Source: Deinococcales bacterium (GTDB lineage: Bacteria > Deinococcota > Deinococci > Deinococcales > JAAFIG01). From it: a stretch of DNA of 64,000 bases. The notes under the pieces were generated by a model. That model searched no databases. It saw only the letters and a program-made list of their open reading frames with translations, and was not told the origin of the DNA. A program made the position numbers and the translations under genes. Shown here one piece after another: positions 1 to 64,000 of the stretch (position 1 is the stretch's first letter; each line of letters starts with the position of its first letter). The stretch is taken from the NCBI GenBank assembly GCA_013298595.1, contig JAAFIG010000009.1, positions 1 through 64,000 on the forward strand. The letters run 5' to 3'.

Positions 1-125
1 CTCGGATCAGCGGCGGCTGCGGTGAATGTGATCGCAGCGGTGAGGGTGGTTTTGCCGTGGTCAACATGTCCGATGGTTCCGACGTTGACGTGCGGTTTTG
101 TGCGTTCAAACGTAGCTTTAGCCAT
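1..125 (-). CDS. tuf: Elongation factor Tu, N-terminal part (cut by window edge)
   Basis: Only the first 41 codons are present, read leftward from the ATG at 125; the gene continues beyond base 1. The product carries aminoacyl-tRNA to the ribosome as a GTPase. The protein begins [20 protein letters not shown] and continues into the P-loop [10 protein letters not shown] (G1 motif), which is diagnostic for EF-Tu. The stretch after the P-loop (alanine-rich, then DP) resembles Thermus EF-Tu. A GGAGG ribosome-binding site precedes the start. It lies downstream of tRNA-Thr and very likely shares its promoter, the usual bacterial tRNA-tuf arrangement. Confidence 0.96.
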
Positions 126-205
126 AATAAATCCTCCAAACAACTTCTATTTATTCCAAACGAATAGACCCACTCGAGGCGGGCATTGCTTTCTTGACTA
201 ACAAA

Positions 206-280
206 TGGAGCTCGCGGTCGGGATTGAACCGACGACCTCCCCCTTACCAAGGGGGTGCTCTACCACTGAGCTACGCGAGC
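206..280 (-). tRNA. tRNA-Thr (anticodon GGU), CCA encoded
   Basis: The minus strand folds as a full cloverleaf: acceptor stem GCTCGCG pairing with CGCGAGC, D-arm GCTCAGTGGTAGAGC, anticodon loop CTTGGTA with anticodon GGT, and T-arm GTCGGTTCAATCCCGAC. The discriminator base is T and CCA is encoded (206-208). The anticodon stem is CCCCC/GGGGG. The gene sits between a strong promoter and tuf. Confidence 0.97.
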
Positions 281-324
281 AAACTCCAAGTCCGAAAAAA
301 ACACACTCTCTCGAGTGCCGCGTG

Positions 325-353
325 AATATAGCACCAAGGGCGCGGGTTGTCAA
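325..353 (-). promoter_or_regulatory. Promoter for tRNA-Thr / tuf
   Basis: The minus strand carries TTGACA (348-353), a 17-bp spacer and TATATT (325-330), close to the perfect sigma-70 consensus. The predicted start of transcription falls about 38-40 nt before the tRNA. It fits the high expression expected for a tRNA-tuf unit. Confidence 0.88.
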
Positions 354-391
354 AGGGCGAAAACAGAAATACTAAAAAAAGCCATACAGAC

Positions 392-1189
392 TTAAAATTT
401 CAAAACCTGTAAAAGCTGGGCTGCGACGCTAATTGCAATAATTTCAGGGGCTTTACCTTGAATCCCAGCTACGCCAATTGGCGTGGTCACTCGAGCAAAA
501 TCGGTGCTGTTAAAACCACGTTTTTCTAAGGCTTGCTGAAAATTCTGCCATTTAATACTTGAGCCAATTAAGCCAATAAAGCTGGTGTCTGAGCGGTTCA
601 AGGCAACCTCGAGAATGCTGATGTCTTGGCTGTGATCGTGGGTCATGATCAGCACAGTAGCTTCTGGGCGTAACTCGAGGAAAACAAATTCTGGACTTGG
701 ATTTTGATAGTGAAAAACCCGACGAATCGCTTGGCTCGAGCAATCTTTGAATCGTGTAGAGGTGAGCATTTCGGCTCTGGTGTCATATAATAAAAGTTCG
801 ATTTCGAGGTTAGAAAGAATTTTTGCCAAGGCAAACCCAACGTGTCCAACACCAAAAATAGCCACTTGGGGTCTGGGTTTAACAAATGGCTCGAGTAAAA
901 TAGTCACTTCGCCTCCGCAGCATTGCATACCAAATTCACCAGCTTGTTGTCCTAAGTTAACGACCATAGAGATTGGTTCTGTCAGGGCTTGCTCGAGTAT
1001 CAACATAGCTTTTTGTACCACTGCTGCTTCAAGATTGCCCCCACCAACACTACCAACAGACTTTTCTTTGGCAATCAGCATTTTGGCACCAGCGGCTCGA
1101 GGTGCATGTCCACGCACTACACTGATTGTGACTAGCACACAAGCTTCGCCACGTTGCAAACAATCCTCGAGTGCTTCTAACCAAAGCAT
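392..1189 (-). CDS. XdhC/CoxI family protein (molybdenum hydroxylase maturation factor)
   Basis: The 265-aa product matches the XdhC/CoxI family, which binds molybdenum cofactor and inserts it into xanthine dehydrogenase-type enzymes. Visible marks are GSVGGGNLE (about 46-54), the CCGGEV cysteine motif (about 90-95), a Rossmann-like IFGVGHVG turn (about 111-118) and the C-terminal GVAGIQGKAPEIIAIS block. Length is normal for short XdhC proteins. No molybdenum hydroxylase subunit is adjacent, so its client enzyme is unknown. The start codon lies only 15 bp from that of the divergent gene at 1205. A TAGATT box 5 nt before the ATG suggests a leaderless mRNA. Confidence 0.85.
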   Translation of the reverse strand: MLWLEALEDCLQRGEACVLVTISVVRGHAPRAAGAKMLIAKEKSVGSVGGGNLEAAVVQKAMLILEQALTEPISMVVNLGQQAGEFGMQCCGGEVTILLEPFVKPRPQVAIFGVGHVGFALAKILSNLEIELLLYDTRAEMLTSTRFKDCSSQAIRRVFHYQNPSPEFVFLELRPEATVLIMTHDHSQDISILEVALNRSDTSFIGLIGSSIKWQNFQQALEKRGFNSTDFARVTTPIGVAGIQGKAPEIIAISVAAQLLQVLKF

Positions 1190-1204
1190 AGTTTAATCTA
1201 CACT

Positions 1205-62165: not shown

Positions 62166-62224
62166 AATATAAAGCTTTGCGCTTAATACGTTTAACAAGT
62201 AAAACTCAAGGGTTTTTGCAAGTT

Positions 62225-62252
62225 GGGCGAGGCACGCTTCGCACCCTACTGG
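62225..62252. repeat. Short GGGCGAGGC-type hairpin
   Basis: GGGCGAGGC-ACGC-TTCGCACCC, an imperfect inverted repeat followed by TAC, similar to 11249-11272 and to 58818-58838 (rev.). The 158-bp gap here (62166-62323) otherwise holds the promoter of the next gene. Confidence 0.45.
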
Positions 62253-62288
62253 TTATTGGCATGCCCCACAGTGTTCTGCCTTAGCCCT

Positions 62289-62317
62289 TTGCCCTCCTCA
62301 CCTAGAAGCGTTACACT
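62289..62317 (+). promoter_or_regulatory. Leaderless promoter of 2-phosphoglycerate kinase
   Basis: TTGCCC (62289-62294), 17-bp spacer, TACACT (62312-62317), then 6 nt to the ATG at 62324. Confidence 0.75.
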
Positions 62318-62323
62318 ACTGCC

Positions 62324-63790
62324 ATGCGCGAGATTCATGTTTCCAGTGGTGGTCATGACTTTCCTTTTTCCAAAGGATTAGTTGTTGAATCATTGTTGAA
62401 TGCAGATATTCCTCGAGAATCTGCCATGGTGATTGCTCGTCGGGTTGAGCAGCGCCTTGTCGATGAAAAACTCAAGATGATTGATCCACACACATTAAAA
62501 CGCATTATTCTCGAGGAAACCCAAGATGTTTTAGGGATTGCAGCGGCTCAGAAACTCGAGCGGCAAACCACAGCTTTTGAGGATGTGATTGTCCGTGATG
62601 GTGAGCGGAGTATTCCGTTCAGTAAAGGGTTGTTGTCGCGATCTTTAGAATTAGCAGGTATTCCAATTAAAGATGCTTTTGGTTTTGCTAAAGATTTAGA
62701 AAAACAATTGCGGGTACAGGGTATCTCGGAGATTTCTCGAGCCAGTTTAGAAAATATTACCCTCGAAGAACTCGAGCGAGTCTATGGTGAGGAACGCAAA
62801 GATGCCTATCTCGAGCGGTATCAACGGGCAACTCAAGTGATGGTGCTTGAAGATGATGAAGGTGTCAGTTTTCCATTTTCAAAAGGTATTTTGGCACAGA
62901 GTTTAATGGCAACGGGTCTAAACCCTGCTAATGCTCATCAGATTGCTCGTGAGATTGAAATTCATTTGCTCGAGGAGAACGAATTGGTGGTTTCGCGGGA
63001 TCGGCTTCGCCAAATTGTGATTACCGCTTTAACAGTAGAAGCAGGAGAAGAAGTCTCGAGGCGTTATACGTTGCTGCGTTCAATTCGTCGTCCTGAAAAA
63101 CCAATTCTTATTCTTATTGGTGGGGTCACAGGCACGGGTAAAAGTGTGTTAGCCGCAGAAATTGGCTATCGTTTAGGGATTACTCGAGTTGAGTCCAGCG
63201 ATTCCATTCGTCAGGTGATGCGAGCCATGATTAGTAAAGAATTGCTACCAGCTTTGCACTCGAGTACTTTCGATGCTTGGACTGCAACCCTCGAGCCAAT
63301 CGAAGAAGCTCAGTTTAAACGCGGTGGTGGGCGTAAATTTGTCAAACCAACCAGAGATCAGTTATTGGATGGTTTCCGCGACCAAGTCAAACAAGTTTCG
63401 GTCGGAATCCGTGCCATTGTTGAACGAGCCAGCAACGAACATACCAGCATGATTATTGAAGGTGTGCATATTGTGCCAGGGTACTTACCCGTAGATTTAT
63501 TCGAGAACGCCATTGTGGTGCCTATGGTGGTTGCTGTTCGTACCGAAGATGCTCATCGGCAAAGATTTTACAGCCGTGATGCCGAAACCAACAAGCACCG
63601 CCCAATGCAGCGTTACCTCGAGCATTTTGAAGATATCCGCAATTTACAAGAATACGTTGAACGCTTAGCTCGAGCCGTTGGTGTGCCCGTGATAGATGCC
63701 GAGAGTTTAGATGCGGCTGTTGAAGGTGCTATCGAAGTGATTGCCCAACGTGTGATGACCTTACAAAAACGCAAAGTGGTGGCTGTTTGA
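62324..63790 (+). CDS. 2-phosphoglycerate kinase with three ATP-cone repeats
   Basis: The 488-aa protein has three repeated ATP-cone-like modules, each beginning with an (F/I)PFSKGL-type motif (residues 13-19, 97-103, 183-189), then a P-loop kinase domain: GVTGTGKS (267-274), ESSDSIRQVMRAMIS, a lysine-rich phosphate loop and IIEGVHIVPGY. It phosphorylates 2-phosphoglycerate to 2,3-bisphosphoglycerate in archaeal homologues, the first step of cyclic bisphosphoglycerate synthesis. The reaction here is inferred from that family. It is leaderless. Confidence 0.8.
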   Translation: MREIHVSSGGHDFPFSKGLVVESLLNADIPRESAMVIARRVEQRLVDEKLKMIDPHTLKRIILEETQDVLGIAAAQKLERQTTAFEDVIVRDGERSIPFSKGLLSRSLELAGIPIKDAFGFAKDLEKQLRVQGISEISRASLENITLEELERVYGEERKDAYLERYQRATQVMVLEDDEGVSFPFSKGILAQSLMATGLNPANAHQIAREIEIHLLEENELVVSRDRLRQIVITALTVEAGEEVSRRYTLLRSIRRPEKPILILIGGVTGTGKSVLAAEIGYRLGITRVESSDSIRQVMRAMISKELLPALHSSTFDAWTATLEPIEEAQFKRGGGRKFVKPTRDQLLDGFRDQVKQVSVGIRAIVERASNEHTSMIIEGVHIVPGYLPVDLFENAIVVPMVVAVRTEDAHRQRFYSRDAETNKHRPMQRYLEHFEDIRNLQEYVERLARAVGVPVIDAESLDAAVEGAIEVIAQRVMTLQKRKVVAV

Positions 63791-63797
63791 GGTGCCT

Positions 63798-64000
63798 ATG
63801 AATCTCGAGCAAATACTGGCAATTTCCCAAAATTTGCATCGCCATATTTGCCCTCGGCAAGTGCTCGGTGCACGCATGGGTTTACTGGCAGGCGAACTTC
63901 TCGAGCTTACATTGCCCAGAGAAGATAAACGCCTTGTGGTGCTGGTCGAAACCGATGGCTGTTTTGCCGATGGTGTTTCGGCTGCCACTGGTTGTTGGTT
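63798..64000 (+). CDS. FmdE-family protein, N-terminal part (cut by window edge)
   Basis: Only the first 67 codons are in the window. They begin MNLEQILAISQNLHRHICPR and include the pattern ICPRQVLGARMGLLAG and VETDGCFADGVSAATGCW, both diagnostic for FmdE (formylmethanofuran dehydrogenase subunit E family). Such proteins have a putative metal-binding Cys/His site; in bacteria their job is uncertain. The ATG is 7 bp after the 2-phosphoglycerate kinase stop, so the two are probably one unit. Confidence 0.85.
   Translation, partial: MNLEQILAISQNLHRHICPRQVLGARMGLLAGELLELTLPREDKRLVVLVETDGCFADGVSAATGCW

What the first reader, a model, noticed from the sequence alone, without database searches (positions are those of the whole stretch)
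1..64000. CTCGAG is a highly iterated palindrome of this genome
96 copies were counted by eye in the first 16 kb (about 6 per kb); chance predicts about 15 in the whole window. Copies occur in all codon phases, even within one gene (42058 Ser-Ser, 42262 Leu-Glu, 42627 Ser-Arg in the DUF790 gene), and in intergenic DNA, so protein selection cannot explain them. Cyanobacterial HIP1 (GCGATCGC) is the known analogue; I know of no description of CTCGAG in this role. Candidate causes are a cognate methyltransferase, a repair or recombination signal, or biased mutation.
Basis: partly seen in the sequence, partly recalled or inferred. Interest (0 to 1): 0.93.

Follow-up and report, generated by a model that had tools for sequence, protein, structure and literature searches.

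The report
Genome-wide CTCGAG palindrome in uncultured Deinococcales
A six-letter DNA word, CTCGAG, occurs about 27,000 times (every ~170 bases) in this uncultured Deinococcales bacterium and its relatives, held there by a uniform, DNA-level pressure strong enough to change their proteins; it resembles the unexplained 'HIP' repeats of cyanobacteria but uses another word, in another phylum, and I found no shared methyltransferase behind it.

Summary
CTCGAG occurs 386 times in the window and 27,159 times in the 4.58-Mb genome (5.9/kb; 29-fold over base composition). The density is equal in genes and between genes and covers all codon phases. The trait spans two related uncultured families: all four genomes of one and three of four of the other (weaker in one). 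It is absent from one relative and nearly so from a horizontally acquired polysaccharide island.

New evidence: (1) a nearly uniform 30-50-fold per-site preference (log-odds about 3.4-3.9) in Ser, Arg and intergenic contexts of five genomes of 45-59% GC, with Leu-Glu at 3.1-4.8; (2) the preference is palindrome-symmetric base by base, so all six bases are read; (3) it overrides protein sequence, doubling Leu-Glu dipeptides; (4) orthologous sites are conserved 64-71% against 12.5% for permuted hexamers; (5) two sites within about 30 bp exclude each other at synonymous positions.

Mechanism: most likely the recognition site of a dimeric, sequence-specific DNA protein, under weak selection or biased repair at every copy. 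A cognate methyltransferase, the rule for cyanobacterial HIPs, was sought in six families: no shared orthologue, no XhoI-type enzyme, no m5C-type hypermutation. New variant of a known kind.

The parts
1..64000 (.). lattice of 386 CTCGAG sites, mean spacing about 166 bp, in genes and between genes
   Evidence: direct count; phases 192 Leu-Glu / 89 Arg / 65 Ser / 40 outside called ORFs
41402..42643 (+).
11294..30215 (-). nuo (complex I) cluster, one of the stretches used for ortholog comparison with G001, G003, G004, G008 and G012
   Evidence: ORFs; orthologous stretches; alignments; tree
42001..62000 (.). second stretch used for ortholog comparison with G001, G002 and G003
43001..50999 (.). stretch of lower density (12-14 sites per 4 kb against a mean of 23.5), which includes a Pro/Thr-rich gene at 45193-46932
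   Evidence: 4-kb sliding count (windows starting 43001 to 47001); ORFs

Best explanation
SHOWN: CTCGAG is a highly iterated palindrome of a clade of uncultured Deinococcales. It is kept at about 6 per kb by a DNA-level pressure that favours the exact 6-bp palindrome 30-50-fold at every site, largely regardless of codon phase, gene or intergenic position and GC content. The pressure is strong enough to add Leu-Glu and Ser-Ser dipeptides to proteins. Recently acquired DNA lacks the motif, so it accumulates slowly, at the pace of mutation. INFERRED: all six bases are read with two-fold symmetry and sites exclude each other within about 30 bp, so the agent is a dimeric sequence-specific DNA-acting protein whose site is CTCGAG, with slight tolerance of CCCGAG in the window's family. 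INFERRED, less sure: each occupied site brings a small, nearly additive benefit (2Nes about 3.5), most simply through occupancy, for example a nucleoid or chromosome-organising protein. Two sites within one footprint are partly redundant. The protein itself was not identified.
For: Uniform strength: log-odds in G000, G001, G003, G002, G012 are Ser-Ser 3.78/3.43/3.60/3.08/3.70, Arg context 3.74/3.78/3.76/3.87/3.48, intergenic 3.75/3.40/3.62/3.84/3.57; Leu-Glu is 4.62/4.53/4.00/3.11/4.78; G008 about 2, G004 about 0. Symmetric recognition, pooled synonymous log-odds: pos1 C>T 3.52 and pos6 G>A 3.48; pos3 C>T 3.52 and pos4 G>A 3.52; pos2 T>C 2.52 and pos5 A>G 2.42; transversions 3.2-4.9. Protein effect: Leu-Glu O/E 2.1-2.45 and Ser-Ser 1.5-1.8 in the five rich genomes, Leu-Glu 1.10 in G004; LE:EL 2045:874 against 284:294, p 2e-21. 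Exclusion: Leu-Glu encoded as CTCGAG falls from 74% (75-100 bp from another site) to 62% (15-30 bp) and 32% (<15 bp; OR 0.16, p 7e-42), with the same trend in Ser and Arg contexts. Eight other codon-pair hexamers and generic 6-bp inverted or direct repeats show no such trend. Conservation: 130 of 183 G000 sites kept in G001 at 76% identity against 12.5% for permuted hexamers. Clade-level inheritance: NuoL tree 97/96, counts. Acquired island nearly free of sites.
Against: No protein was identified. Log-odds are smaller for transitions (2.5-3.5) than for most transversions (about 4), and transition one-offs are 1.9-fold over base composition between genes. Pure selection on the exact site at equilibrium does not predict that; a repair-linked flux or a graded affinity would. 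A near-constant strength across five species is unexpected if it depends on effective population size. The exclusion could have a cause other than occupancy.
Confidence: 0.42

Rival explanations
1. Methyltransferase-coupled HIP, as Elhai proposed for cyanobacteria: CTCGAG (or CYCGRG) is methylated by a resident methyltransferase, and methyl-directed mismatch repair or a function of the mark accumulates sites.
For: All cyanobacterial genomes with a highly overrepresented sequence have a putative methyltransferase able to modify it (PMC4390886). Exact, symmetric 6-bp reading is typical of Type II enzymes. Partial tolerance of CCCGAG in family f1 recalls degenerate CYCGRG recognition.
Against: No methyltransferase orthologue is common to G000-G003 in PF02384, PF01555, PF00145, PF07669 or PF02086; MT-A70 gave nothing, but its control genomes were silent too. 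The C5 enzyme of G000 is HpaII-like (56-59% identity to plasmid enzymes, the best of them beside an HpaII-family nuclease), which fits CCGG avoidance (O/E 0.09), not CTCGAG. Two other G000 enzymes sit beside their own Type II nucleases. C>T shows no extra decay at C1 or C3 relative to each other, so m5C is unlikely.
Confidence: 0.28
2. Biased repair or gene conversion without methylation: a site-reading repair factor resolves mismatches towards CTCGAG, so the lattice is a neutral by-product (molecular drive).
For: Near-constant strength across five genomes of different GC; symmetric site reading; transition one-offs in excess and transversion ones not, which suggests flux rather than equilibrium selection.
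Against: A per-site repair bias does not by itself predict exclusion between sites 15-30 bp apart. I know of no repair enzyme that reads a full 6-bp palindrome against all nine kinds of one-base neighbour.
Confidence: 0.2
3. DNA-uptake signal: naturally competent cells prefer DNA carrying CTCGAG, which drives the word to high copy number as in Haemophilus and Neisseria.
For: Deinococcota are often competent (general knowledge); foreign DNA lacks the word; sites are conserved and under-dispersed at 500 bp (Fano 0.87).
Against: Uptake preference saturates at about one site per fragment, yet the preference stays full down to about 75 bp from a neighbour. Known uptake signals are not palindromes and occur about once per kb (general knowledge).
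Confidence: 0.06
4. Codon usage, amino-acid preference or simple neighbour-dependent mutation.
For: Leu-Glu is the commonest reading (1315 of 2318 coding sites in 464 kb).
Against: Equal density between genes; all phases; CTC and GAG are not preferred outside the motif in the window's genome; all six bases are read; G004 has about zero bias.
Confidence: 0.02

Closest known systems
HIP1 (GCGATCGC) of cyanobacteria
   Same: Highly iterated palindrome over most of a clade, in genes and between them. Comparable O/E: 55-228 in most cyanobacteria (PMC4390886), about 50 on two cyanobacterial plasmids measured here, against 29 here for a 6-mer. The two plasmids also show the same avoidance of other 6-bp palindromes (median O/E 0.21-0.43).
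   Different: Other word, 6 bp not 8; other phylum; density 5.9/kb against 0.3-2.7/kb; no shared cognate methyltransferase found; no GATC core.
Alternate HIPs of single cyanobacteria (GGCGCC in Calothrix PCC 7103, rCCGGy in Oscillatoria PCC 10802, GCsGC in Cyanothece PCC 7822)
   Same: A different GC-rich palindromic word takes the HIP role; GGCGCC is also a 6-mer and one palindromic instance of a degenerate enzyme site.
   Different: Those are sporadic in single genomes and each has a candidate methyltransferase; CTCGAG is inherited across at least four genera of two families.
Uptake signal sequences of Haemophilus and Neisseria (general knowledge)
   Same: Thousands of copies of an exact short word, missing from recent imports.
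   Different: Longer, non-palindromic, about 1 per kb; no full per-site preference at 75-bp spacing.
XhoI/PaeR7I restriction-modification (CTCGAG)
   Same: Same recognition word.
   Different: Restriction normally depletes its own site. XhoI-family nucleases were found only in relatives outside the two CTCGAG-rich families.

Membership tests
Highly iterated palindrome (HIP) in the sense of Elhai 2015 | one palindromic word overrepresented far above all others genome-wide | tested here: met
   27,159 copies; the top hexamer palindrome, O/E 29 against at most 2.04 for any other in 464 kb
Highly iterated palindrome (HIP) in the sense of Elhai 2015 | present in coding and non-coding DNA, not explained by peptide or codon preference | tested here: met
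   5.77/kb coding, 5.97/kb intergenic, all phases
Highly iterated palindrome (HIP) in the sense of Elhai 2015 | a putative methyltransferase able to modify the word is present in the genome | tested here: inconclusive
   no orthologue shared by the rich genomes and no XhoI-type enzyme; single-genome enzymes of unknown specificity remain, and the genomes are 91-94% complete
Highly iterated palindrome (HIP) in the sense of Elhai 2015 | occurs in Cyanobacteria | tested here: not met
   host is a Deinococcales MAG; nearest named records JAAFJQ010000172.1 and JANXTZ010000015.1; NuoL tree
HIP1 proper | word GCGATCGC with GATC and CGATCG methyltransferases | tested here: not met
   CGATCG is among the palindromes avoided in all four f1 genomes
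XhoI-type restriction-modification | XhoI-family nuclease with its methyltransferase | tested here: not met
   PF04555 absent from all CTCGAG-rich genomes; neighbouring methyltransferase types not found
DNA-uptake sequence | preferential uptake of DNA that carries the word | not testable with these tools
   needs a cultured, competent strain

The most novel reading that the evidence does not exclude
CTCGAG is the site of a clade-specific, non-methyltransferase DNA-packaging protein that binds about every 170 bp over the whole chromosome, a bacterial near-nucleosomal lattice written into the sequence at about 3.6% of all bases and strong enough to shape the proteome.
Probability: 0.2. Interest if true: 0.95.

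Novelty: new variant of a known kind. Interest (0 to 1): 0.82.

Why it matters
Why HIP1 exists has been open for decades, partly because it was known from one phylum and confounded with GATC/CGATCG methylation. This is an independent, denser case in another phylum, with a shorter word, a graded series of relatives (full, weak, absent) and no shared methyltransferase found. It allows quantitative tests that a sparser 8-bp word cannot: base-by-base symmetric log-odds, context-independent strength, and short-range exclusion between sites. It also shows a genome-wide DNA-level pressure changing protein composition; scaling up the excess in the sampled DNA suggests on the order of ten thousand extra Leu-Glu pairs per genome.

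Tried and rejected
XhoI nuclease and its neighbouring methyltransferases: not in the clade. MT-A70: nothing, but uninformative because the controls were silent too. C5 enzyme of G000 as the cause: rejected as HpaII-like. Hairpin or repeat avoidance as the cause of the exclusion: rejected, generic 6-mers show none. Distance dependence as a general codon artefact: rejected by eight control codon pairs. Amino-acid memory as the cause of the transition one-offs: unlikely, the excess is also intergenic. Phages of these hosts with the same density: three IMG/VR pattern scans and record counts gave GC-rich phages, where high-GC composition and codon use raise the word, and one eukaryote-like virus record with a local cluster; nothing with the host profile, so inconclusive. 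Chromosome-scale cyanobacterial calibration was not available; two plasmids were used. The row label in the output swaps the Ser and Arg phases; the counts used here are corrected (573 Arg, 430 Ser). That HIP1 sites are reported as conserved and periodic (Xu, Lawrence and Durand 2018) is from memory; the paper is not in the library.
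Full report
WHAT IS THERE. CTCGAG occurs 386 times in the window against 12.7 expected from base composition, and 27,159 times in the 4,582,226-base genome, against 15 for the same letters reversed. In 464 kb of the genome the ratio to base composition is 29, and to a trinucleotide model trained on the same DNA it is 14. Copies lie in Leu-Glu (1315), Arg (573) and Ser (430) readings and between genes at the same density, 5.77 against 5.97 per kb (the Ser and Arg labels in that output are swapped, corrected here). 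The host is a Deinococcales MAG: nearest named NuoL records are JAAFJQ010000172.1 (83%) and JANXTZ010000015.1 (63%). These correspond in length to contigs of genomes G001 and G003.

WHO HAS IT. Among 61 genomes of the order, all four of family f1 carry 5.9-6.5 per kb with 4-15 copies of GAGCTC. In family f2 the genomes G012 and G016 carry 6-8 per kb, G008 about 3.6, and G004 only 0.3. Families f3-f5 are mostly far lower. I read their remaining counts as high-GC codon use (Leu CTC, Glu GAG); this was not tested for them. A NuoL tree places f1 with the f2 members G008 and G004 in one clade (97/96), apart from Trueperaceae. The simplest history is one gain in their ancestor, weakening in G008 and loss in G004; parallel gains are not excluded. 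A polysaccharide cluster at G000:C34 about 70-84 kb (GC 33-39%) is nearly free of the word (1-10 sites per 4 kb against 23.5). Imports therefore do not carry it and acquire it slowly.

HOW STRONG AND OF WHAT KIND. For Ser-Ser, Arg and intergenic contexts I compared how often an eligible place is CTCGAG with the expectation from codon or base usage outside sites. The log-odds are 3.4-3.9 in nearly every context of five genomes whose GC runs from 45 to 59%. Ser-Ser in G002 is 3.1, and Leu-Glu ranges from 3.1 to 4.8. G008 shows about 2, G004 about 0. Changing one base at a time at synonymous positions gives the same value at mirrored positions: 3.52 and 3.48 (1/6), 3.52 and 3.52 (3/4), 2.52 and 2.42 (2/5) for transitions, and 3.2-4.9 for transversions. 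Whatever acts therefore reads all six bases with two-fold symmetry. The pressure reaches protein sequence: Leu-Glu dipeptides are 2.1-2.45 times expectation and Ser-Ser 1.5-1.8 times, against 1.10 and 1.17 in G004, while Glu-Leu is normal.

CONSERVATION. In 33 kb aligned between G000 and G001 (76% identity), 71% and 64% of sites are shared, against 22% of all hexamers and 12.5% of permutations of CTCGAG. Four further pairs show the same excess. Sites that differ are less often exactly one base off than expected (64 against 153 summed over the five pairs; each pair p below 0.01). The pairs are not independent.

EXCLUSION BETWEEN SITES. A Leu-Glu pair 75-100 bp from another site is CTCGAG in 74% of cases, at 15-30 bp in 62%, below 15 bp in 32% (odds ratio 0.16, p 7e-42). 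Ser-Ser and Arg contexts behave alike. Eight control codon pairs in the same genomes and relatives, and generic inverted or direct 6-mers, show no such dependence. This points to a physical footprint or to redundancy within one. It is the main reason I put a bound protein ahead of a pure mutation bias.

THE METHYLTRANSFERASE QUESTION. In cyanobacteria every genome with a HIP has a putative methyltransferase able to modify it (PMC4390886). I surveyed PF02384, PF01555, PF00145, PF07669 and PF02086 in twelve genomes and compared the hits: no full-length orthologue is common to G000-G003. PF05063 gave nothing, but its controls were silent too. XhoI-family nucleases are absent from the rich genomes, and the methyltransferases next to them elsewhere have no close match. 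The only C5 enzyme in G000 is HpaII-like, matching CCGG avoidance. Two others sit beside Type II nucleases, one of them NotI-like. The genomes are 91-94% complete and single-genome enzymes of unknown specificity remain, so this lowers the model without excluding it. Equal C>T log-odds at C1 and C3 argue against m5C at either one alone.

A SHARED SECOND SIGN. In the five strong genomes most other 6-bp palindromes are avoided (median O/E 0.12-0.23 where sampled well, against 0.72-0.77 in G008 and G004). Two cyanobacterial plasmids show the same pair of signs: HIP1 at about 50 times expectation and other palindromes at 0.21-0.43. The usual reading is a heavy restriction load; whether it is tied to the HIP is unknown. 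G008 has a weak HIP without the avoidance.

WHAT IT IS. It meets the descriptive definition of a highly iterated palindrome. It differs from every described one in phylum, word, density (5,930 against 300-2,700 copies per Mb for HIP1; rCCGGy of Oscillatoria PCC 10802 is also above that range), clade-level inheritance of a non-HIP1 word, and lack of a shared methyltransferase. I file it as a new variant of a known kind. What it works like is inferred: the exact site of a dimeric DNA-acting protein, each copy with an effective advantage of about 3.5 in units of 2Nes, or an equivalent conversion bias. Selection through occupancy, methyl-coupled repair and methyl-free repair bias stay open, in that order.

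LIMITS. Gene calls are mechanical; the genomes are MAGs; only parts of each could be read; the log-odds assume that codon choices outside the motif are a fair control; no population, methylation or binding data exist here.

Noticed in passing
whole genome G000; also G001, G002, G003, G012: Most other 6-bp palindromes are strongly avoided (median O/E 0.12-0.23), GAGCTC almost absent (15 in 4.58 Mb), and GGCC is at 0.02 of expectation in G000 although the only C5 methyltransferase found there is HpaII-like.
   Followed up: partly
L209 9850-20000 (G000:C34 about 70-80 kb) and the start of L210: Low-GC (33-39%) capsule/exopolysaccharide gene cluster with very few CTCGAG sites, apparently horizontally acquired.
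   Followed up: partly
window 5767-5829: Three perfect tandem copies of a 23-bp unit (GTGGGTTGCATTCCGCA plus 6 bp) in or beside the start of an alpha/beta-hydrolase-like ORF; not seen in any other fetched locus.
   Followed up: partly
L191, L192, L193 (G018, G042, G048) and L194/L195 (G009): XhoI-family nuclease genes next to two unrelated kinds of methyltransferase: an N4/N6 beta type with TSPPYW in three, an Eco57I-like gamma type in G009, where the nuclease frame is broken by stops.
   Followed up: no
L093 531-2955 (G000:C11) and L117 1396-3242 (G000:C34): Two Type II restriction-modification pairs of unknown specificity in the host, one with a NotI-like nuclease.
   Followed up: partly
   Followed up: partly
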